Shown here piece after piece: positions 2 to 42,131 of a DNA stretch of 62,694 nt (position 1 is the first letter of the stretch; the number at the start of each line of letters is the position of its first letter). The translations under genes were made by a program, and so were the position numbers. This DNA is from an uncultured Oscillospiraceae bacterium (GTDB taxonomy: Bacteria; Bacillota; Clostridia; Oscillospirales; Oscillospiraceae): the NCBI GenBank assembly GCA_905234625.1, contig CAJOIC010000001.1, forward strand, positions 1-62,694, written 5' to 3'. The notes beneath the pieces were generated by a model. That model had not been told where the DNA came from and ran no database searches. It saw nothing but the letters and a program-made list of their open reading frames with translations.

Positions 2-1087
2 TCCGACCGCCGCTTCCAGTACGCGGGGGATCTGAACGCCGGGACCCTCTCGATCACCACGGACGGCAGTACCTTCACCGTCCGGGACGGGGGAGGGAGC
101 ACGCTCCTCACCGTCGGCGGGAACCTTGCCATCCGGCCCACCGGCTCCGATACCGCCGTCACCCGGGTGAATGGGGAGTACCGCTATCGGGGAGGCTTCG
201 AGCTTCGTCCGGCCTACAACGCCTCCGGGAAGATCTCCGTCATCAACTACGTCGGCATCGAGGACTACGTCAAGGGCGTCATTCCGTACGAGTTCGGAAA
301 CACCTGGCCGGCCGAGAGCCTGAAGGCCGCGGCGGTCTGCGCGCGGAACTTCGTCATGACCGCGGACTGGAACGCCTACGCCAATTACGGCGTGGATGTC
401 CTTTCGAACACCGGCTCACAGCTCTACCGCGGGCGGGCCATCACCTACAGCGAGAGCTATTTCACCGCCACGGACGCCGCGGTGGACGCCACGGCGGGGC
501 AGTATCTCACCTACAACGGCAGCCTCTGCGAGACGTACTTTTTCTGCTGCGACGGCGGCGCCACGGAGGACTACGCCCATGTCTGGGGCGGGAGCGGACG
601 GCCCTACCTCGTCGGCAAAGTCGATCCCTATGAGCAGGCCGTGAGCTCCATCGCCGCGAACTACACCTACTCCATCACCCAGAGCCGCACCGGCTCCGCC
701 ATGCAGTCGCTCCTGGGACAATTCGGCCTGAGCGGCACGCGTCTGGTGAAGGACGGCATCCGCGTCGATACCTATCCCGGCACGGGAAATGTCAAGAGCG
801 TCACCCTGGAGACCGAAAGCGGATGGACCGTCGTCATCGACCAGACCACGGACTTCGATCGCTGGGATTTCCTGTCCGCCTTCGGCTTCACCGCCTACAG
901 CTTCCGCTATTCTGTGACCTATGACGCCGCTTCGGACAGCTTCACCTGCACCCGCCTCGGCTGGGGCCACGGCATCGGGCTGAGCCAGTACGGCGCCTAT
1001 GCCATGGCCGGAAGCTACGGCAAAAACTATCAGGAGATCCTCGGATTCTACTTCGACGGGTCCCGTCTGCAATACGGAGCGTACTGA
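2..1087 (+). CDS. SpoIID/LytB domain protein, 5' end outside window
   Basis: The reading frame is open from base 2, so the N-terminus lies before the window. SpoIID/LytB hallmarks are visible: [14 protein letters not shown], then [14 protein letters not shown], and near the end [17 protein letters not shown] followed by YQEILGFYF. In sporulating Firmicutes SpoIID is a lytic transglycosylase that cuts glycan strands during engulfment. LytB-type relatives modify amidase activity, and these cannot be separated here. It is host chromosome, two bases upstream of queA and on the same strand, so probably in its operon. The residues before the first internal ATG (167) are in frame and plausible protein. 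Confidence 0.85.
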
Positions 1088-6272: not shown

Positions 6273-6936
6273 GCGCAGAGAGATAAAGAAGTCCTTAGCC
6301 TACATCGCCGTCGGCGCCGTGTTCGTAGCGCTGGCATCCGGCGCGAAGAACAGCGTAGAAGCCTCTCAAGAGGTGCGTACGAGCTCCACCGTTACGCCTA
6401 TCCACATCATCACCGCGGACGGTACAAGTGCGTATGAGATCGCCACGATCATGGAAGAGCCCGTCAATGCCATTCCCTCCGAATTGCTGGAGCAAATGTC
6501 GGTAGCGCAGACGGAACGGCGAGGCAACAGCCTTATCTCCGAACGCGAGATCGTGATGGTCGCGAAGGGCGTGTACGGCGAGGCTCGCGGCGTTGAGAGC
6601 GTGACGGAACAGGCGGCGGTGATATGGACGTACTTCAACCGGGCGGATGCCTGGGAGATGTCGGTATCGGAAGTGATCCTCCAGCCGAGTCAGTTCTGCT
6701 ACGACGAGAGTTTTCCGACGGTGGACGATTTCGGACGCGATCTGACCGAGCTGGCTCAGGACGTGGCTGACCGCTGGGAGCGCGAGCATAACGGAGAAAG
6801 CTCCGTGGGGCGTGTGCTCCCGGCTTCATATCTGTGGTTTGGTGGAGACGGCGAGCACAATCACTTCAGAAATGCCTACCGCTTCAGCGAGGCGCAGATC
6901 TGGAACTGGAGCCTGCCGAGTCCATATGAAAGCTGA
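6244..6936 (+). CDS. Cell wall hydrolase, SleB-like, with N-terminal membrane anchor
   Basis: GTG start after AGGAGGAG. The 230-residue protein has a basic N-terminus and a hydrophobic segment (about 18-33) that acts as a signal anchor. A Hydrolase_2/SleB-type domain follows: EREIVMVAKGVYGEARG (probable catalytic Glu113), AAVIWTYFNRADAW and VILQPSQFCYDESFP. SleB-family enzymes are muralytic, known from spore cortex lysis. This one lies in the early operon, far from the lysis genes at 42384-44251, so a role in lysis timing is doubtful. Wall remodelling or superinfection effects are possible. Confidence 0.75.
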   Translation: MARRSRKARRRREIKKSLAYIAVGAVFVALASGAKNSVEASQEVRTSSTVTPIHIITADGTSAYEIATIMEEPVNAIPSELLEQMSVAQTERRGNSLISEREIVMVAKGVYGEARGVESVTEQAAVIWTYFNRADAWEMSVSEVILQPSQFCYDESFPTVDDFGRDLTELAQDVADRWEREHNGESSVGRVLPASYLWFGGDGEHNHFRNAYRFSEAQIWNWSLPSPYES

Positions 6937-6945
6937 GGTGAAGGA

Positions 6946-7194
6946 ATGAATACGAAAGAGGCCAGACGGATCGAGGTTTATGTCGAGGCAAAGCTGGGGG
7001 TCAAGATCCCGGCGGAGACGGCGAACGAGGTCCTCGAATACACCATGCGGAAGCTGAGGGTTATCGGCCGGCCGGAGAGCTATTTGCCGGTTTTGTACGA
7101 GAACGAGTTGAGAGACTACTTCATGCGGACCGCTATCAACCTGAAAGGAGAGAAAAGATCATGTGCGCGATCTGCGGAAGCCATCCCTGCATGA
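6946..7194 (+). CDS. Hypothetical protein, 82 aa
   Basis: The ATG follows AGGTGAAGGA. The product (MNTKEARRIEVYVEAKLGVKI at the start) is predicted helical, with YLPVLYENELRDYFMR in its second half. It overlaps the next gene by 34 bp. No recognised family; its place before recombination genes suggests an early function. Confidence 0.6.
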   Translation: MNTKEARRIEVYVEAKLGVKIPAETANEVLEYTMRKLRVIGRPESYLPVLYENELRDYFMRTAINLKGEKRSCARSAEAIPA

Positions 7195-7406
7195 GAGGAT
7201 GTCCGAACGAGCCGGAGCCGGCGGTGTTCTCGACGTGTGCGTACTGCAACGAAGAGATTGTGGATGGTGAAGGCTACGTCGATTTCGAGGGGTTGGAGTA
7301 TCACGAGGATTGCTTTACGGAAGCGGCCCCCGGCATCCTCTTTGAAGACTACGGCGCTGTAAGACGGACGGCGGAGGTGGACAGCTTTGTCGGCATTGGA
7401 TTTTGA
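7161..7406 (+). CDS. Zinc-binding small protein, 81 aa
   Basis: Cysteines occur as MCAICGSHPCMRGC at the N-terminus, then CAYCNEEI and YHEDCF, matching the spacing of treble-clef or LIM-like zinc sites. An AAAGGAGAGAAAAGATC leader precedes the ATG. It overlaps the neighbours on both sides. Possibly an adaptor or nucleic-acid-binding protein; no specific function can be read. Confidence 0.6.
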   Translation: MCAICGSHPCMRGCPNEPEPAVFSTCAYCNEEIVDGEGYVDFEGLEYHEDCFTEAAPGILFEDYGAVRRTAEVDSFVGIGF

Positions 7407-8001
7407 GGCCCTATCCCTCCCGGAGCTTGAGTTCCGCGAGGAGGGGCATCTTTATCTGCTGAACGGGCTGGCGATCCCCAGCGTTACGACGCTCATGGAG
7501 CCGCTGAGCAAGAAGGTCTATGGCACGATTGACCCGGCGGTGTTGGAAGCGGCGGCTCAGCGCGGGACGGAGGTCCATAACGCCTGTGAGAATTACGCGG
7601 CGTTCGGCATCGAGGACATCCGCCCGGAGTATCAGGGGTATCTGGATGCCTTCAAGAGATGGTGCGACACCTTCAAGCCGGAGTTCCTCGGAACAGAGGT
7701 TCGGGTGTATCACAAGATCCTGCGATATGCGGGGACGGCAGACATCTTGTGCAAGGTGAAAGGCGCGACGACGCTGATCGACCTGAAAACCACGTCCTCG
7801 CTTCAGTATATGCTGTGCGGAGTACAGCTTGAGGGATATGACCGGGCGTTCGACAGCCACGGCGTCAAGATCGAGGACAGAGCGATCCTCCATCTGGAGA
7901 GAGGTGGGATGTATGGCTACACCCACTTCAACGAGCGGCAAGAGAGTTGGAGAGTGATCTCCGCGCTCCTGACGATAAAGAACTACCAAGACAAATTTTG
8001 A
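7387..8001 (+). CDS. RecB/Cas4-like PD-(D/E)XK exonuclease
   Basis: TTG start, 204 residues. Motifs of the PDDEXK exonuclease family are in order: GTEVHNACE (His64), AGTADIL (Asp119), TLIDLKTTSS (Asp132, Lys134) and QLEGYDRAF (a QxxxY motif). These match RecB-family/lambda-exonuclease-type active sites. Together with the Bet/RecT protein at 8740 it likely forms the phage two-component recombination system: the nuclease makes single strands and Bet anneals them. Confidence 0.8.
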   Translation: MSALDFEALSLPELEFREEGHLYLLNGLAIPSVTTLMEPLSKKVYGTIDPAVLEAAAQRGTEVHNACENYAAFGIEDIRPEYQGYLDAFKRWCDTFKPEFLGTEVRVYHKILRYAGTADILCKVKGATTLIDLKTTSSLQYMLCGVQLEGYDRAFDSHGVKIEDRAILHLERGGMYGYTHFNERQESWRVISALLTIKNYQDKF

Positions 8002-8014
8002 AAGGAGTCAGAAG

Positions 8015-8737
8015 ATGGCAGAGACAGAACAGGTTGTCGCCGTAGTACCACAGCCGGCGAGCACCGCGACCGAGGACGAAATGATCCTCGCGAGAGAAGT
8101 GACGGACATCGAGCTTCGGGCCGAGGCCGTCACGATCACGAGCGAGGTGGAATACGCCAAGGCTGCGGAGTTCGGCGTCACGCTGAAAACGAAGTCGGCC
8201 GAGGTCGTGGATTTCTTCAAACCGCTGAAGGATGCGGCGTACAAAGCCCACAAAGCCGTGTGCGACCGCGAGAAGGCGGTCCTCGCGCCGCTGAAGAACG
8301 CCGAGAAGATCCTCAAACGCACGATGGGCGAGTACGCTCAGGAACAGGAGCGGAAGCGCCGCGAGGAAGAGGAGGCCATGCGTCGGGCTGCGGAGGCTGA
8401 ACGCGAGCGCCAGCTCCAGAGAGCCGTTGAGCTGGAGGAGCAGGGTGACGTGGCCGGAGCCGAGGACGCCATGATGGACGCCGAGGTCATGGATCAGGCG
8501 GCGACGTACTCCGTCCAGCCGGCGGCTCAGCAGAAGGTCAAGGGCGTCAGTCAGACGAAGGATTGGGAGATCGAGTCTATCGACGGCGCGGTGGTCCCGG
8601 TGGTCTTCGCCGGGATGGAGTTGAGGCCGGTGGACAGGGCTGCGGTCATGCGCCTGATCCGGGCATCGAAGGGCAGTATCGAGATCCCCGGCGTCAAGTA
8701 TAAGGAAACCGTAAAAACCAGTTTTAGGAGGAGCTGA
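8015..8737 (+). CDS. Coiled-coil protein between exonuclease and Bet
   Basis: The 240-residue protein has a helical N-terminal half (EYAKAAEFGVTLKTKSAEVVDFFKPLKDAAYKAHK) and a charged coiled coil at about 95-150 (QEQERKRREEEEAMRRAAEA). A C-terminal domain ends IEIPGVKYKETVKTSFRRS. Proteins of this shape regularly sit beside RecT/Bet in Firmicutes phages and may help load it. It ends two bases before bet. Function unproven. Confidence 0.65.
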   Translation: MAETEQVVAVVPQPASTATEDEMILAREVTDIELRAEAVTITSEVEYAKAAEFGVTLKTKSAEVVDFFKPLKDAAYKAHKAVCDREKAVLAPLKNAEKILKRTMGEYAQEQERKRREEEEAMRRAAEAERERQLQRAVELEEQGDVAGAEDAMMDAEVMDQAATYSVQPAAQQKVKGVSQTKDWEIESIDGAVVPVVFAGMELRPVDRAAVMRLIRASKGSIEIPGVKYKETVKTSFRRS

Positions 8738-8739
8738 TT

Positions 8740-9633
8740 ATGGCAAATACAACTGCGCTGAGTAAGGCTGAGCAGAACGCTCTGGCTGTCAGCTACGAGG
8801 TGCTCGGCACTCGTGTCGAGCTGGATCTCGATTTCGTGAAGAAGTATCTTGTCCGCGGCGCTGCGGATAAGGTCAGCGATCAGGAGGTCGTCTTCTTCAT
8901 GAACACCTGCAAGATGCAGGGGCTGAACCCGCTGGCAAGCGGGGAGGTATATCTGATTAAGTTCGGGAACGATCCCGCGCAGATGGTCGTCGGCAAGGAC
9001 GCATATCTCCGCAGGGCCTTCAGCAACCCGGACTATCTGTTCAAAAAGGACGGCATCGTTGTCCAGCGTGGAGAGGAGATCATCCAGAAGGAAGGGTGCT
9101 GCCTGTACCCCGGCGAGGAGTTGATCGGCGGATGGTGCCGCGTCCACTTCATGCGAGCTGGAGCCGAGCGCACGGCGTTCAAGGAGGTGTCCCTAGCCGA
9201 GTACAACAAGGGCATGGCGAACTGGAAGTCGAAGCCGTCAACGATGATAAACAAGGTTGCCATCAGCCAGTGCGTCCGCGACGCCTTCCCGAAGGACTAT
9301 GAGGGTGTGTACTCCGAAGAGGAGATGGTGGCGTCCGGTGCGATCCCTGTGAACTTCGAGGACATCACGGGCGGCGACGGAGAGGTGCCCGAGCCCGTGA
9401 TCTCTCAGGAAGAGCGTCAGGCCATGTTCCGCAAGGCACAGAACGTGTTCGGCAAGGAAGAAGGCATCGAGGTCGTTCGTTCCATCATCGAAGAGCTGGG
9501 TCTGACGAACACGACGGACATGACCGAGAGCCTGTATAAAAAGGCGATGCTCCGGCTGGCGGAGATCTGTGACGCTCAGATGGAGGCTCAGGAGAGCGGC
9601 GCGTACGACGAGGGGTACGGCGAGGAACAGTAA
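8740..9633 (+). CDS. bet: Phage recombination protein Bet (RecT-like ssDNA annealing protein)
   Basis: The 297-residue sequence shows Bet family blocks: FMNTCKMQGLNPLASGEVYLIKFG, PAQMVVGKDAYLRRAFSNPDY, DGIVVQRGEEI and the INKVAISQCVRDAFP segment. Bet proteins anneal complementary single strands during phage replication and recombination. The acidic C-terminal tail (from about 205) could contact host SSB-type partners. RBS GGAGGAGC precedes the ATG. It follows the RecB-like nuclease and coiled-coil protein in one operon. Confidence 0.9.
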   Translation: MANTTALSKAEQNALAVSYEVLGTRVELDLDFVKKYLVRGAADKVSDQEVVFFMNTCKMQGLNPLASGEVYLIKFGNDPAQMVVGKDAYLRRAFSNPDYLFKKDGIVVQRGEEIIQKEGCCLYPGEELIGGWCRVHFMRAGAERTAFKEVSLAEYNKGMANWKSKPSTMINKVAISQCVRDAFPKDYEGVYSEEEMVASGAIPVNFEDITGGDGEVPEPVISQEERQAMFRKAQNVFGKEEGIEVVRSIIEELGLTNTTDMTESLYKKAMLRLAEICDAQMEAQESGAYDEGYGEEQ

Positions 9634-31627: not shown

Positions 31628-34600
31628 ATGATAAGACTGATTGGAGCGGATGGCGTACACCATCCGCTTTCTGGTTATAGGCGGCTGCACATCAAGCATA
31701 AGCTGGACGGCTGTGACACGCTGACGTTCTATCTGGACACGGCGCACGAGCAGTACCCGCTGATCGCCGAGGAGTGCCGCATACTGGCGGCTGACAATAG
31801 CTGGCTGGTGAAGAAAATCGACGACGACCGCATAACGTGCGAGCTGGACTTCGATTTTCTGAAGGGCCGGTTTTATAGAGACTACAAGAGCGAGACGCGC
31901 CTGTTGACCCAGGTCCTCGCTCAGCATCTGCCGGACGGCTGGACCATTGAGAACGGAAATGTGTCCACGATCCGGCGGAGCATCAGCTTCGACTACTGCA
32001 CGGATTACGACGTGGTGTATCAGTGTATGCACACCTACGGCGTGTACTTCGTGTGGCATATCCCGGAGAAGCGCGTGGTGGTCCATAACCCCGACATGGA
32101 AGTGCCGACGGGCGAGTACCTGACGACGGAGCTGAACCTGAAGGCGCTCAGCTTCAAGGGCTCCACGTCTGACTTTGCCACGAGGATGTATGCCTACGGC
32201 GCGGACGGTATGACGATGGAGGACGCCATCGTAGACGGGCGGCGGTACGGGCTCCAGTATGTTGACGACAACACCTATTCCGACAAAGTGGTCGTAGCGT
32301 ATTGGGCCGACGAGAGGTACACGGTCCCGGAAAATTTGTATGCCGACACGAAAGCGAAACTGGCGGCGATGGCGAACCCTGTGCGATCGTACTCCTGCGA
32401 CGCGGAGGATCTCGCGGCGAGAGACCCCCGGTATTCGTTCCTGGATTTCGCGATGCACAAGGTCATAACGCTGATCGACAGGGACCGGGGCGTCCGCGTG
32501 AACCATCAGATCGTCGAGTACGACGAGTACCCGGACGGCGAGGACGACAACAAGATCACGCTGGCATCGGTGCCGGCGACGATCAAGACCCGCACGGCGA
32601 GGATTGCCGAGCAGACCACGGAAGAGATCGCGCAGTCGAGCAACTACCTAGAGAGCCGGATCAACATGGCGACCGCCATGCTGACCGGCGTTTTTGGCGG
32701 TCATGTGTACTCCGACGGTTCGGAAATCTTCATCATGGACACGGCGGACCCGAACACGGCTCAGGTTGTGTGGAGATGGAATATCAACGGCTTCGGCAAA
32801 TCCTCTACCGGCATACAGGGGCCGTACACGACGGCCATGACCTTTGATGATACGTTCATCACGAGCTTGATCGAGGGCGTCGTGATCCGCGGTGAGTACA
32901 TTATCGCGAATAGCATCGCGGCGAACAAGCTGGTGATCGGCGATGTTGCGGAGGAGCTGGGCGAGGAAGGCACTCTGGCGCTTTCCTCTGAGGCGATCCG
33001 CGGCGTGGCTGTGTATTATGCCCTGTCCGCATACAGCACCGTGGAGACACCTGGCGAGGCCCCGGAAGACATCTCTGATAACGACTGGAGCACAGTCGCG
33101 CCTGACTGGACGCAGGGTATGTATATGTGGCAGAAGACGGTGACGACGTATGCCGATGGCAACACCTCGGAGTCGTTCCCGACCTGCATCTCCGGCGCCG
33201 TGGGACAGGATGGCGTGGGTGTCGAGAGCGTGGAGGTGAGCTATGCCCTCACCACAACGAACACGGTCCCAGTGTCTGGCTGGCAACCGTCGATGCCGAG
33301 CGTGGAACCTGGGAAATACCTCTGGCAGCGCACGGTGACGATATACGAGGATCAGACCACAAGCACGTCGTACCTCGCGAGCTACTTTGGGGAGGACGGC
33401 GACGACGGCACCCCAGGCGACAGCTACTATGTCCACTTCGCGTACTCCACATCGGCAGATGGCTCGGAAAACTTCAGCACGACGACATTCACCGGCGCGG
33501 TTTATATCGGCGTCTGCACAGACACAACCCGGCAGGACCCGCAGACGTACACGTCGTATGCCTGGTCCAAGATCAAGGGCGAGGACGGTACAAACGGCCG
33601 AGGGATCTCCTCGGTCGTCGAGTATTATCTGGCAACGACGGAGAGCAGCGGCGTCACCCGCGCACACGCTGGATGGACGAACGCCGTGCAGCACGTCTCG
33701 TCGGCCGCTCCGTATCTCTGGAACTACGAGCACGTCAATTACACGGATGGGACGAGCTATGACACGGACCCGGCCTTGATCGGCAACTGGTCTGAAGACG
33801 GAGACGACGGGCGCGGCATCGCGAACGTGGTCGAACATTATCTTGCGTCGGCGCTGGACTCTGGCGTGACGACAGAGACCCCCGGTTGGACGACGACGGT
33901 ACAGACGATCACGCCGGCGCTGAGATACCTCTGGAACTATGAGGTCGTGACATACACGGACGGCACGAGCGCGGTGTTCGGGCCGGCAATCATCGGCGTG
34001 TACGGCGTCACCGGGCGCGGCGTAGTGCGGATCACAAACTACTACCTCGCCACCGCGTCGGATGCTCTGGCGATCAGGGCGGAGGACTACGGCGACGGTG
34101 ACATCGAGATCATAACAGACGAGTTCGAGGCCATCGACGACGGCGACGGCAATATCACTATCCCGGAAAACGGACGCCTGACGGTGACTGACGAAGGCGT
34201 TGGCGAGATCGAGATGGAGTCCGCTGGCATATCTCCAGACACCCCCGGTTGGAGCGAAGACGTGACGACGCAGACCATCGACGCTACGAAGCCTTATCTC
34301 TGGAATTACGAGGAAATAGAGTACAGCGACGGCACAATCGAGACGACAACGCCGTTCATCATAGCGACGTACACGCAGGACGGCCGCGGTATCGTGAGCA
34401 TCACCGAGTATTACCTCGTGTCCGATCAGGAGACGGGCGTCACGATCTCCGGGAATACGTGGTACACGGTCCCGCAGATCTCCAGCACGGCCTATCCGTA
34501 CATCTGGAACTATGAGGCCATCGTATTTACGGACAGCGACACGCCGGTATGCACGACGCCGAGAGTGATCGGAGTGCATGGAGCCACGGGTCCACAGGGG

Positions 34601-37402
34601 CCGCAGGGAGAACAGGGCATCCAGGGACCCGCTGGTGCCGACGGCGACACGACGTACTTCCACATCAAATACTCGGCGGTGGCTAACCCGGCGGCTTCCG
34701 ACATGACGGAGACGCCATCGACCTACATCGGAACTTATGTTGACACGACGGCGCTCGACAGTTCCGATCCGGCTGATTACACCTGGGCGCGTTTCCAAGG
34801 CCTTCAGGGCGAGCAGGGCGAACAGGGCATCCCCGGCACGGACGGCACGGACGGCACGACGTACTATTTGCACATCAAGTACAGTGACGACGGCGGTCAA
34901 ACATTCACCGGAAACAGCGGCGAGGAAGTCGGTGAATACATGGGAACGTGTGTAGACACAACACAGGCGGACCCGACAACGGTCGCTTCCTACACATGGG
35001 CGAAGATCAAAGGCGAGGACGGACGTGGAGTCTCTGGCATCACAGAATACTACGCCAAGTCCAGTGACTCGACCACGGCGCCAGTCACCGGCTGGAGTAC
35101 CGCTGTTCCTACGCTGGACGCGACGGATAAGTTCCTCTGGAATTACGAGACGATCCACTACACAGACGGCACGAGTCCGTCAACGACTCCGGCTGTTATC
35201 GGCGTGTTTGGTGCCGACGGCGCTGCTGGCCGCAGTATTACGGGCGTCACCGAGCACTATCTGGCTACTTCGGCGTCCTCTGGTGTGACGAAGAACACCT
35301 CCGGGTGGACAACGAGCATCCAGACGATAGATGCCACCAACAAGTATCTGTGGAACTACGAAACGATCAGCTATTCCTCCGGTAATCCGACAGATACGAC
35401 CCCGGTCATTATCGGCACATACGGCGAAAAGGGCGATACCGGAGACAGCGGGCCGCAGGGCGTCGGCGTAACTTCCGTCGTCGAAGAGTACATCCTGTCC
35501 ACATCGAACACCACGGCGCCGAGCGGCTCTGCTGCTGGCTGGTCTGAGACCTGTCCTGCGTGGGAGTCCGGGAAATACATCTGGATCAGGGTCAAGACAA
35601 CGCTGACGAACGGGACGGTTACGACATCTGCGCCGACGCTGGCGAACGCGCTGAACAGCGCCAACAGCACGGCATACAGCCGGGCTCAGGTCTACTACCA
35701 GACGGACGCGCCGAGCAACCCGAAGACCAACGATGTGTGGTACAAGATCGCATACTCCGGGAGCGCTGTTCCGACGAACAGCAATTCCCCGGCTTCAAGC
35801 TGGACCACAAACGCATTGAAGGCCGCCCACCTGGGCGACCTCTATTACTGCTCCGGGAACGGCTATTATTACACCTACGCCTCGACCGCGAGCGGCTATA
35901 CGTGGGTGATTGCTCAGTCCTCCGACGGCTCCGGCCTCGACCGTATGTACGTCTACGTCAACGGTTCGTGGGTGCAGCACAAGACCGGCACGACTTCCAT
36001 CACGGACGGCGCGATCACGACCGATCTGCTGGCCGCGCAAGCGGTCACGGCGGCAAAGGTGCAGACCAACAGCCTGACGGTTAACTGCTTCGCGCAGAGC
36101 GTTCAGAGCTCCCTTGCGACCGCCGACGCCGTGGCAAGTATGGTGAACTACACCTTTAATGCGAGCGGCATGCACGTCACCGTAGGCGGGACCGAGATGA
36201 TAACTCTCGGCTCCGATGGCAGCCTATACGCCGGCAACGCGACGCTGACCGGCTCCCTGACGACCAATGCGGACGGGAATGGATCTACGGCTTTTCTGTA
36301 TCAGTACGGCCTCCGCTTCGATAACGGTCTAAAGCAAGGCACCCTTGCCGTGCATCCATATTTGGGCGTTGGCTCAGATTATGGACTCGCATTCCTGGTG
36401 TCGCGAACGAGTTCTGTCATGGGGACCGAGGCGATGAAGCACCTCTCCATCGGGATAGCGAACGCCGGCGACTCTGGCTATGTTGCCGGGTATGTGCTGA
36501 ATAACGGGCTGAACCCTGACGGCTATACGGAGCGCAACCTCATGTATGGTGGCCTTCGCATTGATGGGGTGTTGTACGATCCGACGTTGCTGAGAAATTT
36601 CTATACGTCGAGACCGTCCACGGCAGACATGCCGATCACAGGCTCCGGCGGAATGTCGAAGTTCCTTGCTACAAGCAGCATGTCGGCGAAACCCGGAGGC
36701 TGCGACGCTCATATCCTGCACATGTTTTGGGATAACCTCGGCGGATGGGACTCACAGCTGGCTGTCACAAACGGCGACGATCCACACGTCTATATAAGAG
36801 GACAGAACAGCGGCACGTGGGGGGTGTGGCGAGCTGTCCTTGACAGCGGAAACTATTCAACCTACGCGCTCCCTCGGACTGGTGGCTACATTGGGAACGC
36901 CAGCACGGTATGGATCCGGGAGACGGACGACAACCGCGGTAATATTCAGATCTTTAAGCCAGGAAGCTCTGGCAATGTGCTGGCAATCAATCTCTATGCA
37001 AACCAAGGGAATGCCGGCGGTGAGATAGACCTGCACGATTACACCGGGACCAGGAAGGTGGCAATTTATGCTGGAAGCGATCAAATTGGTCGAGTTCGTA
37101 CCTATTCAGCGGATGGTTATTCCTATACAGCGGTTCAACCGAACGGAATTTGGCTTGGTTACAACACGCTTACCCAAACGAATGAAGGGCCTCTTTATTG
37201 CGGGAGCATCGGAGCCAGTGGCGCACTTACAGTGGCGGGAGCTGCGACCTTCAATGGTGGCCTGACTGTACCAACGGGCCAGACACTCACGGCGCGGACC
37301 GCGAAGCTCGGGCAATACGGCTCAGACATGACAAATGCCTATTGGCAAAGCATCACGATCAACGGAACATCTTATACCGTGCTCATAAGATACGGTGGAT
37401 AA
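31628..37402 (+). CDS. Tail endopeptidase / fibre protein with tandem repeats, 1924 aa
   Basis: The N-terminal part (about 1-330; SGYRRLHIKHKLDGCDTLTFYL, DYKSETRLLTQVLAQHLPDGW) resembles prophage tail-associated hub proteins (Tal). From about residue 655 to 1350 there are six or more tandem units of about 70 residues with GRGI..V.EYYLAT..SSGVT..GWT and PYLWNYE..YTDGT...P.IIG. Collagen-like GPQGPQGEQGIQGP and GEQGEQGIPG stretches lie between. One unit carries an acidic insertion (near 34080-34240). The C-terminal third is a glycine-rich fibre with a receptor-proximal look. It likely forms the tail tip and side fibre. Confidence 0.88.
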   Translation: MIRLIGADGVHHPLSGYRRLHIKHKLDGCDTLTFYLDTAHEQYPLIAEECRILAADNSWLVKKIDDDRITCELDFDFLKGRFYRDYKSETRLLTQVLAQHLPDGWTIENGNVSTIRRSISFDYCTDYDVVYQCMHTYGVYFVWHIPEKRVVVHNPDMEVPTGEYLTTELNLKALSFKGSTSDFATRMYAYGADGMTMEDAIVDGRRYGLQYVDDNTYSDKVVVAYWADERYTVPENLYADTKAKLAAMANPVRSYSCDAEDLAARDPRYSFLDFAMHKVITLIDRDRGVRVNHQIVEYDEYPDGEDDNKITLASVPATIKTRTARIAEQTTEEIAQSSNYLESRINMATAMLTGVFGGHVYSDGSEIFIMDTADPNTAQVVWRWNINGFGKSSTGIQGPYTTAMTFDDTFITSLIEGVVIRGEYIIANSIAANKLVIGDVAEELGEEGTLALSSEAIRGVAVYYALSAYSTVETPGEAPEDISDNDWSTVAPDWTQGMYMWQKTVTTYADGNTSESFPTCISGAVGQDGVGVESVEVSYALTTTNTVPVSGWQPSMPSVEPGKYLWQRTVTIYEDQTTSTSYLASYFGEDGDDGTPGDSYYVHFAYSTSADGSENFSTTTFTGAVYIGVCTDTTRQDPQTYTSYAWSKIKGEDGTNGRGISSVVEYYLATTESSGVTRAHAGWTNAVQHVSSAAPYLWNYEHVNYTDGTSYDTDPALIGNWSEDGDDGRGIANVVEHYLASALDSGVTTETPGWTTTVQTITPALRYLWNYEVVTYTDGTSAVFGPAIIGVYGVTGRGVVRITNYYLATASDALAIRAEDYGDGDIEIITDEFEAIDDGDGNITIPENGRLTVTDEGVGEIEMESAGISPDTPGWSEDVTTQTIDATKPYLWNYEEIEYSDGTIETTTPFIIATYTQDGRGIVSITEYYLVSDQETGVTISGNTWYTVPQISSTAYPYIWNYEAIVFTDSDTPVCTTPRVIGVHGATGPQGPQGEQGIQGPAGADGDTTYFHIKYSAVANPAASDMTETPSTYIGTYVDTTALDSSDPADYTWARFQGLQGEQGEQGIPGTDGTDGTTYYLHIKYSDDGGQTFTGNSGEEVGEYMGTCVDTTQADPTTVASYTWAKIKGEDGRGVSGITEYYAKSSDSTTAPVTGWSTAVPTLDATDKFLWNYETIHYTDGTSPSTTPAVIGVFGADGAAGRSITGVTEHYLATSASSGVTKNTSGWTTSIQTIDATNKYLWNYETISYSSGNPTDTTPVIIGTYGEKGDTGDSGPQGVGVTSVVEEYILSTSNTTAPSGSAAGWSETCPAWESGKYIWIRVKTTLTNGTVTTSAPTLANALNSANSTAYSRAQVYYQTDAPSNPKTNDVWYKIAYSGSAVPTNSNSPASSWTTNALKAAHLGDLYYCSGNGYYYTYASTASGYTWVIAQSSDGSGLDRMYVYVNGSWVQHKTGTTSITDGAITTDLLAAQAVTAAKVQTNSLTVNCFAQSVQSSLATADAVASMVNYTFNASGMHVTVGGTEMITLGSDGSLYAGNATLTGSLTTNADGNGSTAFLYQYGLRFDNGLKQGTLAVHPYLGVGSDYGLAFLVSRTSSVMGTEAMKHLSIGIANAGDSGYVAGYVLNNGLNPDGYTERNLMYGGLRIDGVLYDPTLLRNFYTSRPSTADMPITGSGGMSKFLATSSMSAKPGGCDAHILHMFWDNLGGWDSQLAVTNGDDPHVYIRGQNSGTWGVWRAVLDSGNYSTYALPRTGGYIGNASTVWIRETDDNRGNIQIFKPGSSGNVLAINLYANQGNAGGEIDLHDYTGTRKVAIYAGSDQIGRVRTYSADGYSYTAVQPNGIWLGYNTLTQTNEGPLYCGSIGASGALTVAGAATFNGGLTVPTGQTLTARTAKLGQYGSDMTNAYWQSITINGTSYTVLIRYGG

Positions 37403-38272: not shown

Positions 38273-38503
38273 ATGAAAGCAATCAGCGCAGAGCCGAAAG
38301 GCACCAATTCGGGCGGCGGCAGGGTGGTTCAGGCGTTCATCGTTGCAGACAACACCCCGGCGACGCTTCCGACAAGCGGTGCGAGCGTGGATGGTCTTTA
38401 TGACACGGACACGTTCGCGCCGTTTTCCGTTCTGTATGTTGTGGCCGACGTGGACGCGAAGGTCTACATTACGAACGAGTCCGGCGTATTCATTCCACAG
38501 TAA
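38273..38503 (+). CDS. Hypothetical small structural protein, 76 aa
   Basis: ATG 38273 follows AAGGAGGTAAAG. The product (MKAISAEPKGTNSGGGRVVQAFIV, later VLYVVADVDAKVYITNE) looks like a small beta-sandwich tail protein. It lies between BppU-like and DGR target genes. No specific family recognised. Confidence 0.6.
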   Translation: MKAISAEPKGTNSGGGRVVQAFIVADNTPATLPTSGASVDGLYDTDTFAPFSVLYVVADVDAKVYITNESGVFIPQ

Positions 38504-38513
38504 GGAGGACATC

Positions 38514-38678
38514 ATGGAAGGAAACGTATTTAGTAAGATCCTCCAGCTTGTCCTGACGTTCTTTACTCTCGGTAAGAAGTACACGGACAAGGCCGTGGCC
38601 GACGCGGAGCTGGAAGCCTGCGGGTACACCTTTACGGACGACGGCGACGGCAACATCACCATCACAGCAGACAGCTAA
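38514..38678 (+). CDS. Small protein upstream of DGR target, 54 aa
   Basis: AAGGAGG precedes the ATG. The N-terminal half is hydrophobic (FSKILQLVLTFFTLG). The C-terminal half ends YTFTDDGDGNITITADS, sharing DDGDGNITI with the acidic insertion in the fibre protein at about 34135. It is too short and differently built to be the DGR accessory Avd. Confidence 0.55.
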   Translation: MEGNVFSKILQLVLTFFTLGKKYTDKAVADAELEACGYTFTDDGDGNITITADS

Positions 38679-38687
38679 GGAGGAAGT

Positions 38688-40148
38688 ATGGGAAGCAAAG
38701 CTCTGAAATCCATCAAGTTCCCCGGCCTCTCGGACACCTACGTCATTAACGCCGTGGGTGTTCACCACTATACGGCCCGGTGGGACAAGGCAACGGCGAG
38801 CCTGACGCGCCTGAACGACGCGGAGGGCATCACCACGACGGTCACGAACTTCAAGCACAGTGGTTCGGTGAACGCGAACTACTCCAACCCGTTCGATAAC
38901 ATTTATCCGTGGGCTGGACGTAAGCTGTGCAATATCGACATCGACGTGTACTACGGTCTGAGCTCCGGCGATAGTATCCGCAAGGCGGTCAAAGCCTGGG
39001 AGGGAGACCCCGACTTCAGCTACGACGATGCTGATGGCGTGTGGGTCTACACCCCGGAGTTTTGGGGCAAGAGCTGGGACGACGGGACGTATCGGTACTT
39101 CGATGTCACGGACGCGCCGCTGGGCGGCTACGTCCACTACGAGGAGGACATCATGGGCCGGTGGCACGGCCGCAGCGTGAGCCGTCAGATCGACGGCACC
39201 GAGAAGACCGTGCTGATCCCGTCCGTGGGTATGCCCGCGAAGAGGATCGCCATGAGCACCATGCACGGGTACGCGAAGAATGCGAAAATGACCGTGGACG
39301 ACATCTTCACGCTGGATGGAAATATCCTGCTGGCTATCGTGGAGTTCGCCAGTATGAACCTCCAGAGCGCCATCGGCAGCGGCGTGTCCTCGTTGTATCG
39401 GCAGAGCTCCGACACCATCCAGGAGGCAGCCACGGCCAGCACGGTTGTGAAGGTCCTGAAGGCGAACGCCGGCACGGTTATCCCCGGCGCGATATTCGAC
39501 ATCGGCACGTCGAACGGCGGCGTCGAGGTCGGCTCCTACATCGTCGTCAGCACGGCGACGGATGCCAGCGACTCGACGCTGCTGGATGTCACGCTGAACG
39601 AGGCCGTGACCGTGACGACCGCCCACTTCTGGAGCGTACACGGCCTGAGCAACGTGGCGGACGCGGACATCGGCTCCAAGTCCGGCTACATCGGACCGGA
39701 CGGCCAGAGCAACGTGTACTACCGCGGCGCGGTGATCTACGGCAACCTCTGGTTCTATATCCTGGGCGCGTACCGCGATAGCTCCAACAAGGTCTGGCTC
39801 GCGCACGACCGGGCTGAGGCGGACGCCGCAGACGCGCTGAACACCGGGGTTCACATCGACACCGGCATAACGCTGGCGACGACAGGCGGTTATATCCAGA
39901 CGCTGGCGCAGCTCAGTCGGTCGGATCTGATCTCGATTGCGCCGATCTGCACGGCGGTCGGCGGCAGCGCCTCCGCTCCCGTTGGGGACTACCACTATAT
40001 CAACGCAACGGCCGGGAACACCATCCTTCTGTGCGGCGGCCACGCGACCAACGGGACGCACGATGGCCCCCTGTGCGGGTACTGGAACACCGCCGCGTCG
40101 TACGCGTACTGGAACATTTCGGCTCGTCCCCATCTCAAATCCCCCTAA
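38688..40148 (+). CDS. DGR target protein with C-type-lectin-like variable C-terminus
   Basis: In this 486-residue protein the N-terminal domain (about 1-250, with IYPWAGRKLCNIDIDVYYGLSSGD and YEEDIMGRWHGRSVSR) is followed by a Thr/Val-rich insertion (270-350). The C-terminal lectin-like part ends GPLCGYWN...YWNISARP, the usual DGR variable-protein ending. Residues 452, 454, 458, 463, 465, 468, 472 and 474 are the positions where the gene differs from the template, each at a template adenine. All but 463 (template Tyr) are AAC Asn codons in TR. It follows BppU-like and fibre genes, so it is probably the receptor-binding tip. Confidence 0.92.
   Translation: MGSKALKSIKFPGLSDTYVINAVGVHHYTARWDKATASLTRLNDAEGITTTVTNFKHSGSVNANYSNPFDNIYPWAGRKLCNIDIDVYYGLSSGDSIRKAVKAWEGDPDFSYDDADGVWVYTPEFWGKSWDDGTYRYFDVTDAPLGGYVHYEEDIMGRWHGRSVSRQIDGTEKTVLIPSVGMPAKRIAMSTMHGYAKNAKMTVDDIFTLDGNILLAIVEFASMNLQSAIGSGVSSLYRQSSDTIQEAATASTVVKVLKANAGTVIPGAIFDIGTSNGGVEVGSYIVVSTATDASDSTLLDVTLNEAVTVTTAHFWSVHGLSNVADADIGSKSGYIGPDGQSNVYYRGAVIYGNLWFYILGAYRDSSNKVWLAHDRAEADAADALNTGVHIDTGITLATTGGYIQTLAQLSRSDLISIAPICTAVGGSASAPVGDYHYINATAGNTILLCGGHATNGTHDGPLCGYWNTAASYAYWNISARPHLKSP
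40025..40129 (+). repeat. DGR variable repeat (VR)
   Basis: About 105 bases at the 3' end of the target gene match the template repeat 270 bases downstream. Substitutions relative to TR at 40041, 40048, 40059, 40075, 40080, 40090, 40101 and 40107 are all at template A (to C, G or T). One further change, C to T at 40118, is silent and lies in the 3' zone where the homing signals IMH and IMH* differ. The outer 5' limit rests on a short tccttc match. Confidence 0.93.
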
Positions 40149-40156
40149 GGGGGTTC

Positions 40157-40182
40157 GCCAAGGGGGACGCATCCCCCTTGGC
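40157..40182 (+). promoter_or_regulatory. Perfect hairpin just downstream of VR
   Basis: A perfect 10-bp stem (GCCAAGGGGG with CCCCCTTGGC) with a 6-base loop lies 27 bases past the end of VR. It lacks a T-run, so it is a poor terminator. DGRs such as that of phage BPP-1 need a hairpin/cruciform at this place for target recognition, making this the likely equivalent. A smaller CCCCC-TAA-GGGGG dyad carrying the stop codon precedes it (40141-40153). Confidence 0.6.
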
Positions 40183-40210
40183 ATTCTCATAGCGCAGCAA
40201 CGCATGACCT

Positions 40211-40229
40211 GACCGCGAGGGCGGTCTTT
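40211..40229 (+). terminator. Weak hairpin between target gene and TR
   Basis: GACCGC-gagg-GCGGTC followed by TTTG. The stem is short and the T-run is only three bases. It may slow target-gene transcripts or separate them from TR RNA; evidence is limited. Confidence 0.3.
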
Positions 40230-40294
40230 GATCCATAAAATCCCTTGAAAATCAGTATAGGCTGTAAGAGGCGAAGGGCCGGGTTTTGGTTTCT

Positions 40295-40399
40295 CCTTCA
40301 GTGCGGCGGCAACGCGAACAACGGGACGAACGATGGCCCCCTGTACGGGAACTGGAACAACGCCGCGTCGAACGCGAACTGGAACATCTCGGCTCGTCC
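40295..40399 (+). repeat. DGR template repeat (TR)
   Basis: The non-coding copy is built on AAC triplets separated by A-poor codons, so that mutating A varies chosen residues while the framework stays. The 100 bases at 40301-40400 hold 25 adenines. Nine of the ten differences from VR fall on them, the last at the edge of the match. It lies between the target gene and the reverse transcriptase, the classical order. Confidence 0.93.
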
Positions 40400-40567
40400 A
40401 TCTCTCTTGACATCTCCGTTGACGAAGTGTCAGCGTCTTACAGCCTCACCCCTTGGTGAAAATAATAGCCGCCCCGGAGCTGAGGCGCCGGGGTAGGGAA
40501 ACGGACTAGTAGGCGCTCCTGGGGGAGCGTTCGACCGCCCGTTCAGGCAAGAGAGGGCGAAACATCA
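40295..40567 (+). ncRNA. Predicted DGR template RNA (TR plus structured spacer)
   Basis: The template repeat and 168 bases of GC-rich spacer run to the reverse transcriptase start without an ORF. The spacer contains several self-complementary stretches (around 40473-40495, ccccggagctgaggcgccgggg; and the gcgctcctgggggagcg hairpin near 40512-40528). In studied DGRs the spacer 3' of TR folds and binds the reverse transcriptase to prime cDNA. RNA ends are not defined and no promoter stands out. Confidence 0.6.
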
Positions 40568-41674
40568 ATGCCGAGAAGAGTTGGACACCTGTATGAGCGT
40601 ATGGTGGAGCGTGAGAACTGCATCGCCGCCGAGAAGCTGATTGCGAAGAACAAGCCGGACAATAAGATGGCTCAGCATATCGCGAAGAACGCGGAACGGT
40701 ACGGCGAGGAGCTGTTCATAAAGCTGCGGGACGGGACGTTTGAGTTTCATGAGAACCGCGAGACGACGATCACCGACACATACAAGGGGAAGATCCGGCA
40801 TCTGAAAATACCATGTATTGAGGACCAAGCGGCTCAGCAAGCGTGGCTTATCATCGCCATTCCCTATATCGTACGCCGGAATTATTTTTATAACTGCGGC
40901 TCGATCCCTAACGCCGGACAGACAAGGGCGACGAATGGATTGAAGAAAGTGCTCAAGGCCAAGAAGTGCAGATACGGCGCGACGAGCGATATACGGCATT
41001 TTTACGAGACCTGTCCGCATGAGGCGGTCCTGAGAGGGCTGCGCCGGATCTTCAAAGACAAGAAGTTTATCGACTTCGCCGCGAGGATCATGCGGAACAT
41101 GAGTCCGACGGGCGTGGGGCTCGCCATAGGCCATCCGACGAGTCATTGGTTCGCGAATATCGCGCTGATGGAGATAGACCAGCAACTCCGTCGGCTGTTC
41201 CCGGACGTATGGTTCACTCGATATATGGACGACGTTGGCATGGCATCGAACAACAAGCGGCATCTCCGCAAGGCGTTCCTGTATATGAAGCGGCGGGTCC
41301 AGGAGTTGGGCATGAGGCTCAAGGACGACTGGCAGATCTTCCGCATAGCGAGGACGCGGCTGCGCGGCCGAGTGCCGGAGACGAAAACGAAGAGTGCGAG
41401 AGGGCGGGGCATCCCGTTCCTCTCGTACACGTTTTATCCCGGCTTTACCGTGCTGCGGAAGCGGCTGATGTACCGCATCTCCAGGAAGATGAAACGAGGC
41501 CAGACGAACCTGAGTGTCCACATGGCCGAGGGCATCGTGTCGTATATCGGCATACTGAAGCACTGTGACAGCTACAACTTCCGGCAGGATCGAGTCCTGC
41601 CGTATGTAAATCCCAAGAAATGCAGGAGGATTATTTCAAATGCGAGCAAAGACCTATTACTCCGAGCGACCTGA
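40568..41674 (+). CDS. DGR reverse transcriptase
   Basis: The 368-residue enzyme has polymerase motifs in order: SDIRHFYE (Asp141), LAIGHPTSHWFANIAL (185-200), RYMDDVGMA (Tyr219-Asp222) and GIPFLSYTFYPG. The IGxxTSH/Q-type motif replacing QGxxxSP, and the absence of maturase, endonuclease or X domains, fit DGR enzymes rather than group II introns or retrons. It would copy the template RNA with errors at adenines. The last 35 bases overlap the next gene. No avd gene is apparent nearby. Confidence 0.92.
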   Translation: MPRRVGHLYERMVERENCIAAEKLIAKNKPDNKMAQHIAKNAERYGEELFIKLRDGTFEFHENRETTITDTYKGKIRHLKIPCIEDQAAQQAWLIIAIPYIVRRNYFYNCGSIPNAGQTRATNGLKKVLKAKKCRYGATSDIRHFYETCPHEAVLRGLRRIFKDKKFIDFAARIMRNMSPTGVGLAIGHPTSHWFANIALMEIDQQLRRLFPDVWFTRYMDDVGMASNNKRHLRKAFLYMKRRVQELGMRLKDDWQIFRIARTRLRGRVPETKTKSARGRGIPFLSYTFYPGFTVLRKRLMYRISRKMKRGQTNLSVHMAEGIVSYIGILKHCDSYNFRQDRVLPYVNPKKCRRIISNASKDLLLRAT

Positions 41675-42131
41675 CGAGATCCAGGTGGTACGCGCAGGCG
41701 ATAACGCCGTGATCTTCTTCCGCCAGAACATCGCCGAGATACCGCAGCCGGAGGAGAGCGCTCCGCAGTTCATGGCCGACGAGTACACCCTGACCGTGCC
41801 GTTTACGGACGACTTGTATGAGCGTGTCACCAACAGCGCGGCGTGGCTCCAGAAGGCCATGCAGGAGGACTACGAGAAGGCAGCCGCTGCTGCGCGGCTG
41901 GTCCGCGACGATCTGCTGGCGGCCTCTGACTGCGAGATGGCGCTGGATCGGCTGGGCCTGTCCGTTCCGTCCGGCACCACCTTTACGGCGTGGCTGAGTT
42001 TCTTCAAGAAGCTGGGCGAGGTCCTTCTTGGCGGCGTGGCGGCTTACCGTCAGGCGCTCCGAGATCTGCCTCAGCAGGAAGGTTTCCCGTATGACATCGA
42101 CTGGCCGGACCATCCGGCCGGCGGTGAATAA
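41640..42131 (+). CDS. Tail fibre assembly-like protein
   Basis: The ATG follows AGGAGGATTATTTCAA and lies in the reverse transcriptase gene's tail. The 163-residue product ends AAYRQALRDLPQQEGFPYDIDWPDHP, the signature of phage tail fibre assembly proteins. It probably aids folding or attachment of the fibre or the DGR-varied tip, and its place beside the DGR supports that. Confidence 0.7.
   Translation: MRAKTYYSERPDEIQVVRAGDNAVIFFRQNIAEIPQPEESAPQFMADEYTLTVPFTDDLYERVTNSAAWLQKAMQEDYEKAAAAARLVRDDLLAASDCEMALDRLGLSVPSGTTFTAWLSFFKKLGEVLLGGVAAYRQALRDLPQQEGFPYDIDWPDHPAGGE

What the first reader, a model, noticed from the sequence alone, without database searches (positions are those of the whole stretch)
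38688..41674. Complete diversity-generating retroelement in a tail-tip operon
Seen directly: the 3' end of the 486-residue target gene (40031-40130) aligns without gaps to a non-coding copy at 40301-40400. Ten positions differ; nine are adenines in the non-coding copy (25 A in 100 bases), and the tenth is a silent C/T near the 3' end. Seven of the eight altered codons well inside the repeat are AAC in the template and become His, Thr or Tyr. A YMDD reverse transcriptase with a DGR-like IGxxTSH motif follows. Known biology: adenine-specific mutagenic retrohoming diversifies C-type-lectin-fold binding proteins. Inference: the target follows fibre and BppU-like genes, so host-receptor range is being varied, and the present VR shows the element has been active since acquisition.
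Basis: partly seen in the sequence, partly recalled or inferred. Interest (0 to 1): 0.93.

Follow-up and report, generated by a model that had tools for sequence, protein, structure and literature searches.

The report
Phage cassette mutating its own tail tip
A gut-type bacteriophage carries a well-known kind of genetic cassette that keeps rewriting the tip of one of its own tail proteins at chosen positions, probably to keep up with changes on the surface of the bacteria it attaches to.

The parts
38688..40148 (+). DGR target gene, 486 aa; tail protein with C-type-lectin-fold variable domain and an inserted beta domain (about residues 238-318)
40024..40129 (+). variable repeat VR, 3' end of target gene
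40294..40399 (+). template repeat TR, between target and RT
   Evidence: offset 270 from VR
40116..40136 (+). probable IMH zone of VR (TR counterpart 40386-40406 = IMH*): non-A and clustered differences at 40118 and 40130-40132
   Evidence: label and limits by analogy with BPP-1 (PMC3240598), inferred
40141..40153 (+). hairpin 1 after VR: CCCCC-TAA-GGGGG, the target's stop codon is the loop
   Evidence: similar arrangement in relatives
40157..40182 (+). hairpin 2 after VR: 11-bp stem, loop CGCA; probable cruciform that marks the target site
   Evidence: DNA fold of 40131-40190 -19.0 kcal/mol, z -6.0, 0 of 200 shuffles; loop differs from published GRNA (PMC3240598 passages)
40402..40555 (+). 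TR-to-RT spacer, structured RNA; closing helix 40402-40409 with 40548-40555
   Evidence: three helices, 98.5% of 197 cells paired, 9 of 18 pairs with changes on both sides, 0 of 500 shuffles for four of five measures, 12 of 500 for the fifth; closing helix 8 of 8 pairs in 13 of 13 sequences
40568..41674 (+). DGR reverse transcriptase, 368 aa, IGHPTSH in motif 4, YMDD; 17-aa insert at residues 261-277
   Evidence: phrog_1423 E 2.6e-65; RVT_1; best PDB 8ub7 E 1.2e-10, which matches BPP-1 Brt over all 328 residues, E 4.5e-230; tree; insert
41640..42131 (+). tail fibre assembly chaperone-like protein (PF16778), overlaps the end of the RT gene; neighbour, not needed for the DGR call
   Evidence: relative found in 11 of 16 loci searched

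Best explanation
This is a phage DGR working by mutagenic retrohoming. The TR-spacer RNA folds into a compact structure next to TR; the RT at 40568-41674 copies TR with errors opposite adenines; the cDNA replaces VR at the end of the 486-aa tail gene, with the site marked by the IMH zone and the hairpins behind VR. TR stays intact, so the target can be re-diversified again and again. The changed residues (eight in the inner part of the present VR) sit in the lectin-fold domain and should form a binding surface for a bacterial surface molecule. Shown here: anatomy, adenine specificity, overwriting of VR by its own TR in each lineage, covarying spacer RNA, predicted lectin fold. Inferred: priming from the spacer, cruciform function, receptor binding, host-range effect, present-day activity.
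For: repeat pair, A bias; symmetric scan: 187 of 199 mismatches at TR A in 13 loci; ten of these: 141 of 146; A>T 46, A>C 41, A>G 54; VR follows its own TR at 1104 of 1104 ordered comparisons over 33 alignment columns; window 8 to 20 sites per relative, none against; RT in an 11-row clade, 100/100, among DGR-type RTs; with 124 (closest solved RT is BPP-1 Brt); hairpins; covarying spacer RNA; lectin-fold variable protein; tail operon of a temperate siphophage.
Against: One non-A difference (40118) and the cluster 40130-40132 need the IMH explanation. Motif 4 is SH, not SQ. No Avd was found by two models that do find BPP-1 Avd, and inactivating Avd abolishes activity in the reconstituted BPP-1 system (PMC12875486, passages). 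The RT has a 17-aa insert found in no other SH-clade member, which might impair it. The window has the fewest changed template adenines of the loci scanned that have an SH RT or an orthologous target of the same clade (9; the others 12 to 20). The spacer of the window alone folds no better than shuffles (z -1.18) and its closing helix alone is reached by 33 of 300 shuffles; only the comparison across relatives supports it. Relative L034 has only 12 of 18 mismatches at A, and L056 and L019 have an orthologous target but no pair. No reads, so no direct view of live diversification.
Confidence: 0.96

Rival explanations
1. A decayed DGR: the cassette was active in the ancestor, but the RT (17-aa insert, SH motif, no Avd) no longer works, and the present VR is a frozen relic.
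For: 17-aa insert absent from the other SH-clade members; only 9 of 25 TR adenines differ, the lowest of the ten loci (range 9 to 19); one non-A difference inside the repeat; no Avd found.
Against: RT, TR and target are intact open frames with YMDD; the closing helix of the spacer is kept in the window; VR matches the window's own diverged TR at all non-A sites compared with nine relatives; SH is shared by a whole clade with adenine-biased VRs.
Confidence: 0.12
2. An ordinary tandem duplication of the gene end with gene conversion, not a retroelement.
For: Two similar copies 270 bases apart; conversion would also keep the copies alike.
Against: Conversion or drift does not put 187 of 199 differences opposite A in one copy; a DGR-type RT lies next to it; the same layout recurs in relatives.
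Confidence: 0.01
3. The DGR is real and active but the target does not set host range: the tail protein binds something else, such as mucus or other cells.
For: Phage DGR targets with an unclear ligand are discussed in print (tentaclins, PMC10743442, passages); no ligand evidence here.
Against: Position directly behind Prophage_tail and BppU-like tail genes and fold kin to Mtd, the BPP-1 receptor-binding protein (record note).
Confidence: 0.2

Closest known systems
BPP-1 DGR of Bordetella phage (mtd-avd-TR-brt)
   Same: Phage tail target with 3' VR; TR, then a spacer (145 nt there, 169 here), then RT; adenine-only differences (17 of 17 in the scan); hairpin after VR (PMC3240598); lectin-fold target; RT homologous (25% identity over 295 columns)
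   Different: avd lies between mtd and TR there; none found here by two models; RT motif SH instead of SQ; hairpin loop CGCA instead of GRNA and a second hairpin with the stop codon in its loop
Caudoviricetes sp. vir215 (Methanomassiliicoccales) DGR, NC_092586
   Same: phrog_5302 tail protein followed by TR and a phrog_1423 RT, no annotated gene between them; 15 of 15 mismatches at A
   Different: RT motif SQ, on the other side of the midpoint root of the tree
TaqVP, DGR variable protein of a Thermus aquaticus prophage (PDB 5vf4)
   Different: 15% identity over the aligned residues; the aligned part does not cover the whole protein
IMG/VR and MAG relatives of the same clade (L004, L028, L029, L031, L032, L033, L036, L046)
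   Same: Same target family (50-63% identity to the window), same target-TR-RT order; RT motif SH in each of the seven whose RT was aligned (L046's RT was not aligned)
   Different: N-terminal parts of the target differ; TRs have diverged at non-A sites

Membership tests
Diversity-generating retroelement | RT of the DGR group close by | tested here: met
   phrog_1423; best solved relative BPP-1 Brt; the tree holds only RTs collected by similarity to this one plus BPP-1, no group II or retron outgroup was added. NCBIfam's best hits are group II, retron and DRT models far below their cut-offs
Diversity-generating retroelement | TR/VR pair with differences confined to template adenines | tested here: met
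   9 of 10 here; 187 of 199 in 13 loci, symmetric scan
Diversity-generating retroelement | VR at the 3' end of a target gene, TR outside genes | tested here: met
Diversity-generating retroelement | (I/V/L)GxxxSQ motif in RT region 4 | tested here: not met
   IGHPTSH. Not a strict requirement: DiGReF reports variation of the last two residues in 15 of 155 elements, SH among them (PMC3521204, passages)
Diversity-generating retroelement | YxDD box | tested here: met
   YMDD
Diversity-generating retroelement | GC-rich hairpin after VR with 4-nt loop (phage DGRs) | tested here: met
   11-bp stem, 4-nt loop, 27 bases after the VR end at 40129; loop CGCA does not fit the published GRNA
Diversity-generating retroelement | IMH / IMH* pair | tested here: inconclusive
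   clustered 3' differences are consistent; function not tested
Diversity-generating retroelement | Avd accessory protein (present in BPP-1; not in all DGRs, recalled) | tested here: not met
   NF033474 and PF22296 find BPP-1 Avd but nothing in the window's assembly (82% complete), nor in the records of four relatives (NF033474) or three (PF22296); PF05635 told nothing, as its control stayed silent. A divergent Avd is not excluded
C-type-lectin-fold DGR variable protein | lectin fold holding the VR | tested here: met
   predicted model compared with solved structures
C-type-lectin-fold DGR variable protein | variable residues solvent-exposed | not testable with these tools
   model coordinates were not readable; said of all structurally characterised relatives in PMC6328139 (passages)

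The most novel reading that the evidence does not exclude
The window belongs to a clade of phage DGRs that work with RT and RNA alone: the three-helix spacer RNA takes over what Avd does in BPP-1, with an RT whose motif 4 has settled on SH, and a target site marked by two tandem hairpins, one of them built around the stop codon. That would be a minimal, Avd-free DGR machine.
Probability: 0.22. Interest if true: 0.55.

Novelty: new member of a known kind. Interest (0 to 1): 0.3.

Why it matters
By itself it adds one well-formed member to a large known class. Its use is as a test bed: a compact clade with intact, adenine-biased VR/TR pairs, no recognised Avd, SH instead of SQ, and a spacer RNA whose helices are supported by covariation. 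That makes two points testable: whether the SQ motif is needed for adenine-specific errors, as PMC3521204 proposed, and whether a DGR can run without Avd.

Tried and rejected
First structure job (12 rows, pLDDT 63): no PDB match at E 0.001 or better; VIA on it listed mainly one inserted beta domain; the viral library gave 28 matches at E 0.001 or better, many named tail collar fibre proteins. It was replaced by a 20-row alignment. Rfam: no match in the window at gathering scores. A pattern scan for close VR/TR copies in viral contigs gave 0; the target has no tblastn match in the phage collection at E 1e-5. First genome-contig scan found nothing; the second found one Oscillospiraceae MAG. A family scan of 400 genomes with the RT alignment at E 1e-70 found only the window's own.

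The VR/TR pairs were first located by a scan that favours A or T mismatches, which could flatter the count (141 of 146). I therefore repeated it without base preference on the 17 loci with an orthologous target end. Two hold under 200 bases downstream (L047, L052). Of the other 15, 13 have a pair and 2 (L019, L056) have none; the 13 give 187 of 199 mismatches at A, including L034 with 12 of 18, which the first scan had missed. No pair was found in L005 and L030 (cut before VR), L016, L018, L023, L026, L040, L051, L059, nor an adenine-biased one in L069-L072. L061 and L067 were not scanned.

The closing helix taken alone in one sequence is not significant (33 of 300 shuffles in the window; BPP-1 4 of 300), so I rest it on covariation. 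The structure counted came from RNAalifold on the same alignment (25 pairs); I counted 18 pairs in 3 helices and left out 7 pairs (two two-pair helices and one three-pair helix).

The tail chaperone 3' of the RT was considered as an Avd substitute because it is so often linked (11 of 16 loci); it matches a tail assembly chaperone family instead. A small upstream gene (about 54 aa) was put into in a wrong frame and so was not tested.

Full report
What was checked. Window 40031-40130 and 40301-40400 align without gaps, with ten differences, nine of them opposite A in the 40301 copy, and the tenth silent. The pair really spans 40024-40129 against 40294-40399 (scoring with no base preference: 10 mismatches, 9 at A, P 5e-6). 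Searches of the assembly at E 0.001 find only these two copies and one RT of this kind.

Where it lies. The contig is 62,694 bases, the same as the window, and reads as a temperate siphophage: an integrase (phrog_95, also like DNA invertases, hence probably serine-type), a RecT-like annealing protein, large terminase, portal, tape measure and Dit, then a Prophage_tail protein of 1924 aa, a BppU_N protein, the target, TR, RT, a tail assembly chaperone, a weakly holin-like protein and an amidase. The hosts are only partly placed: one RT relative lies in an Oscillospiraceae MAG from roe deer abomasum.

Adenine specificity in relatives. Seventeen loci hold the end of an orthologous target; 15 of them hold more than 1 kb behind it. 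A symmetric scan finds a VR/TR pair in 13 of the 15 (not in L019 and L056). Together they have 199 mismatches, 187 facing A in TR; the weakest is L034 with 12 of 18. In the ten loci pooled earlier (window, L004, L021, L028, L029, L031, L032, L033, L036, L046) it is 141 of 146, with 4 at C and 1 at G, although A makes up 249 of 1103 template bases; the A changes go to T (46), C (41) and G (54).

Has it moved since it diverged? The TRs of these ten loci differ from each other at non-A sites (33 of 78 columns). If VR were an old copy left to drift, some VRs would carry another lineage's base. In all ordered comparisons VR carries its own TR's base 1104 times, the other's base 0 times and a third base 0 times; for the window it is 8 to 20 sites per relative, with no exception. 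These comparisons are not independent, since the same sites recur across pairs, but the absence of any exception means VR has been rewritten from its own TR in each lineage. It does not show activity today.

The RT. It hits phrog_1423 (2.6e-65) and RVT_1. The closest solved structure is 8ub7, which matches BPP-1 Brt over its full 328 residues. Among 33 RTs aligned, 12 have SH in motif 4, 14 have SQ, 5 have SP (two), NQ, CQ or AQ, and 2 (L014, L016) have other residues and were left out of the tree. The window sits in an 11-row all-SH set with support 100/100, inside a 14-row set that adds L035 (SH), L034 (AQ) and L011 (SP), also 100/100. SH has been seen before: DiGReF lists it among 15 of 155 exceptions (PMC3521204, passages and one section read). 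Another survey took the five exceptions it saw (AQ, AN or loss) for probable inactivation or sequencing error (PMC4244168, passages). Here a whole clade carries SH together with adenine-biased VRs, which speaks against inactivation.

Avd. Two Avd models, NF033474 and PF22296, find BPP-1 Avd (E 2e-32 and 2e-37) but nothing in the window's assembly. They also find nothing in the records behind L004, L019 and L036, nor (NF033474 only) L032. The assembly is 82% complete, but the DGR itself has no ORF of 60 aa or more between target and RT except the frame through TR. A very divergent Avd is not excluded.

Target-site hairpins. Behind VR lie two tandem hairpins: CCCCC-TAA-GGGGG, whose loop is the stop codon, and an 11-bp stem with loop CGCA (DNA fold -19.0 kcal/mol against -7.6 +/- 1.9 for shuffles). 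In ten loci the script lists the second hairpin in nine, with a perfect stem of 6 to 13 bp: loop CGCA in 7, CTCA in L032 and CAAC in L033; L031 shows CGCA by eye with an imperfect stem. The first hairpin with a 3-nt stop-codon loop is listed in 7 of 10 (window included) and seen by eye in L004; L029 has a 4-nt loop and L033 has none. The published phage consensus loop is GRNA, and loop sequence matters in BPP-1 (PMC3240598, passages), so this clade may use a different recognition rule.

Spacer RNA. Between TR and RT, 11 aligned sequences support three helices: 98.5% of cells paired, 9 of 18 pairs with changes on both sides, 0 of 500 shuffles as good on four of five measures (12 of 500 on further pair types), and 38-53% paired when slid by 1 to 3 columns. 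The outer helix pairs the 3' edge of TR with the bases just before the RT gene, 8 of 8 pairs in 13 of 13 sequences. In BPP-1 the spacer folds and recruits bRT-Avd, and an adenine in it primes cDNA synthesis (PMC12875486, passages); by analogy this RNA should do the same here. Against: the window's spacer alone is little more stable than its shuffles (z -1.18, 25 of 200 as good).

Function. Viruses with DGRs are linked by CRISPR spacers to more host diversity (PMC8144416, section read), and the target here is in a tail operon, lectin-fold and phrog_5302 'tail protein'. Receptor variation is the likely role, but it is inferred.

Verdict. Confirmed, correctly identified, and a new member of a known kind with some clade-level peculiarities: SH motif, no recognised Avd, CGCA loop, stop-codon hairpin, covarying spacer RNA. 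My searches for print on related points were in an open-licence library only; I do not claim that these features are unpublished.

Noticed in passing
L012, L013, L018, L029, L041 (RT genes): In 5 of 33 RTs aligned the second catalytic Asp of YxDD is Asn (YMDN/HMDN; codons AAC/AAT). Four of the five have TR/VR pairs with differences at template adenine: 15 of 16, 14 of 14, 13 of 13 and 4 of 5. DiGReF reported both Asp 100% conserved (PMC3521204, section read). The box recurs in about three places of the tree, so it may be functional.
   Followed up: partly
   Followed up: partly
L019:5031-9070: An orthologue of the window's target (60%) has no TR of its own; an SQ-type RT downstream serves a second target (6471-8726; 15 of 15 at A), and a third VR-like copy (8778-8895; 18 of 25 at A) lies behind that target's stop codon. 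Suggests swapping of DGR cassettes between targets.
   Followed up: partly
L034:5576-5874: Only 12 of 18 VR/TR mismatches face A; by eye some of the others fall where relatives' templates have AAC, as if the template itself had been adenine-mutated.
   Followed up: partly
window 41348-41398 (RT residues 261-277): A 17-aa insert between YMDD and the thumb, absent from the other SH-clade RTs but with residues in those columns in L012 and L018 (17), L041 and L014 (14), L013 and L039 (9).
   Followed up: partly
window 41640-42131: Tail assembly chaperone-like gene overlapping the RT's 3' end; a relative is found in 11 of 16 loci searched, right behind the RT in the 10 whose RT was placed, also behind the SQ-type RT of L019.
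   Followed up: partly
L005:1-50: Contig begins with what looks like an Illumina adapter (recalled), so its end is an assembly artefact.
   Followed up: no
window 32648-35158 (-) and 38490-40205 (-): Long antisense ORFs (836 and 571 aa) opposite the tail and target genes; probably a by-product of GC-rich codon use.
   Followed up: no
35 genomes of the window's genus: 7 of 35, the window's own included, hold a match to the RT at E 0.001 or better, of several RT types, so such RTs are not rare in this genus.
   Followed up: partly
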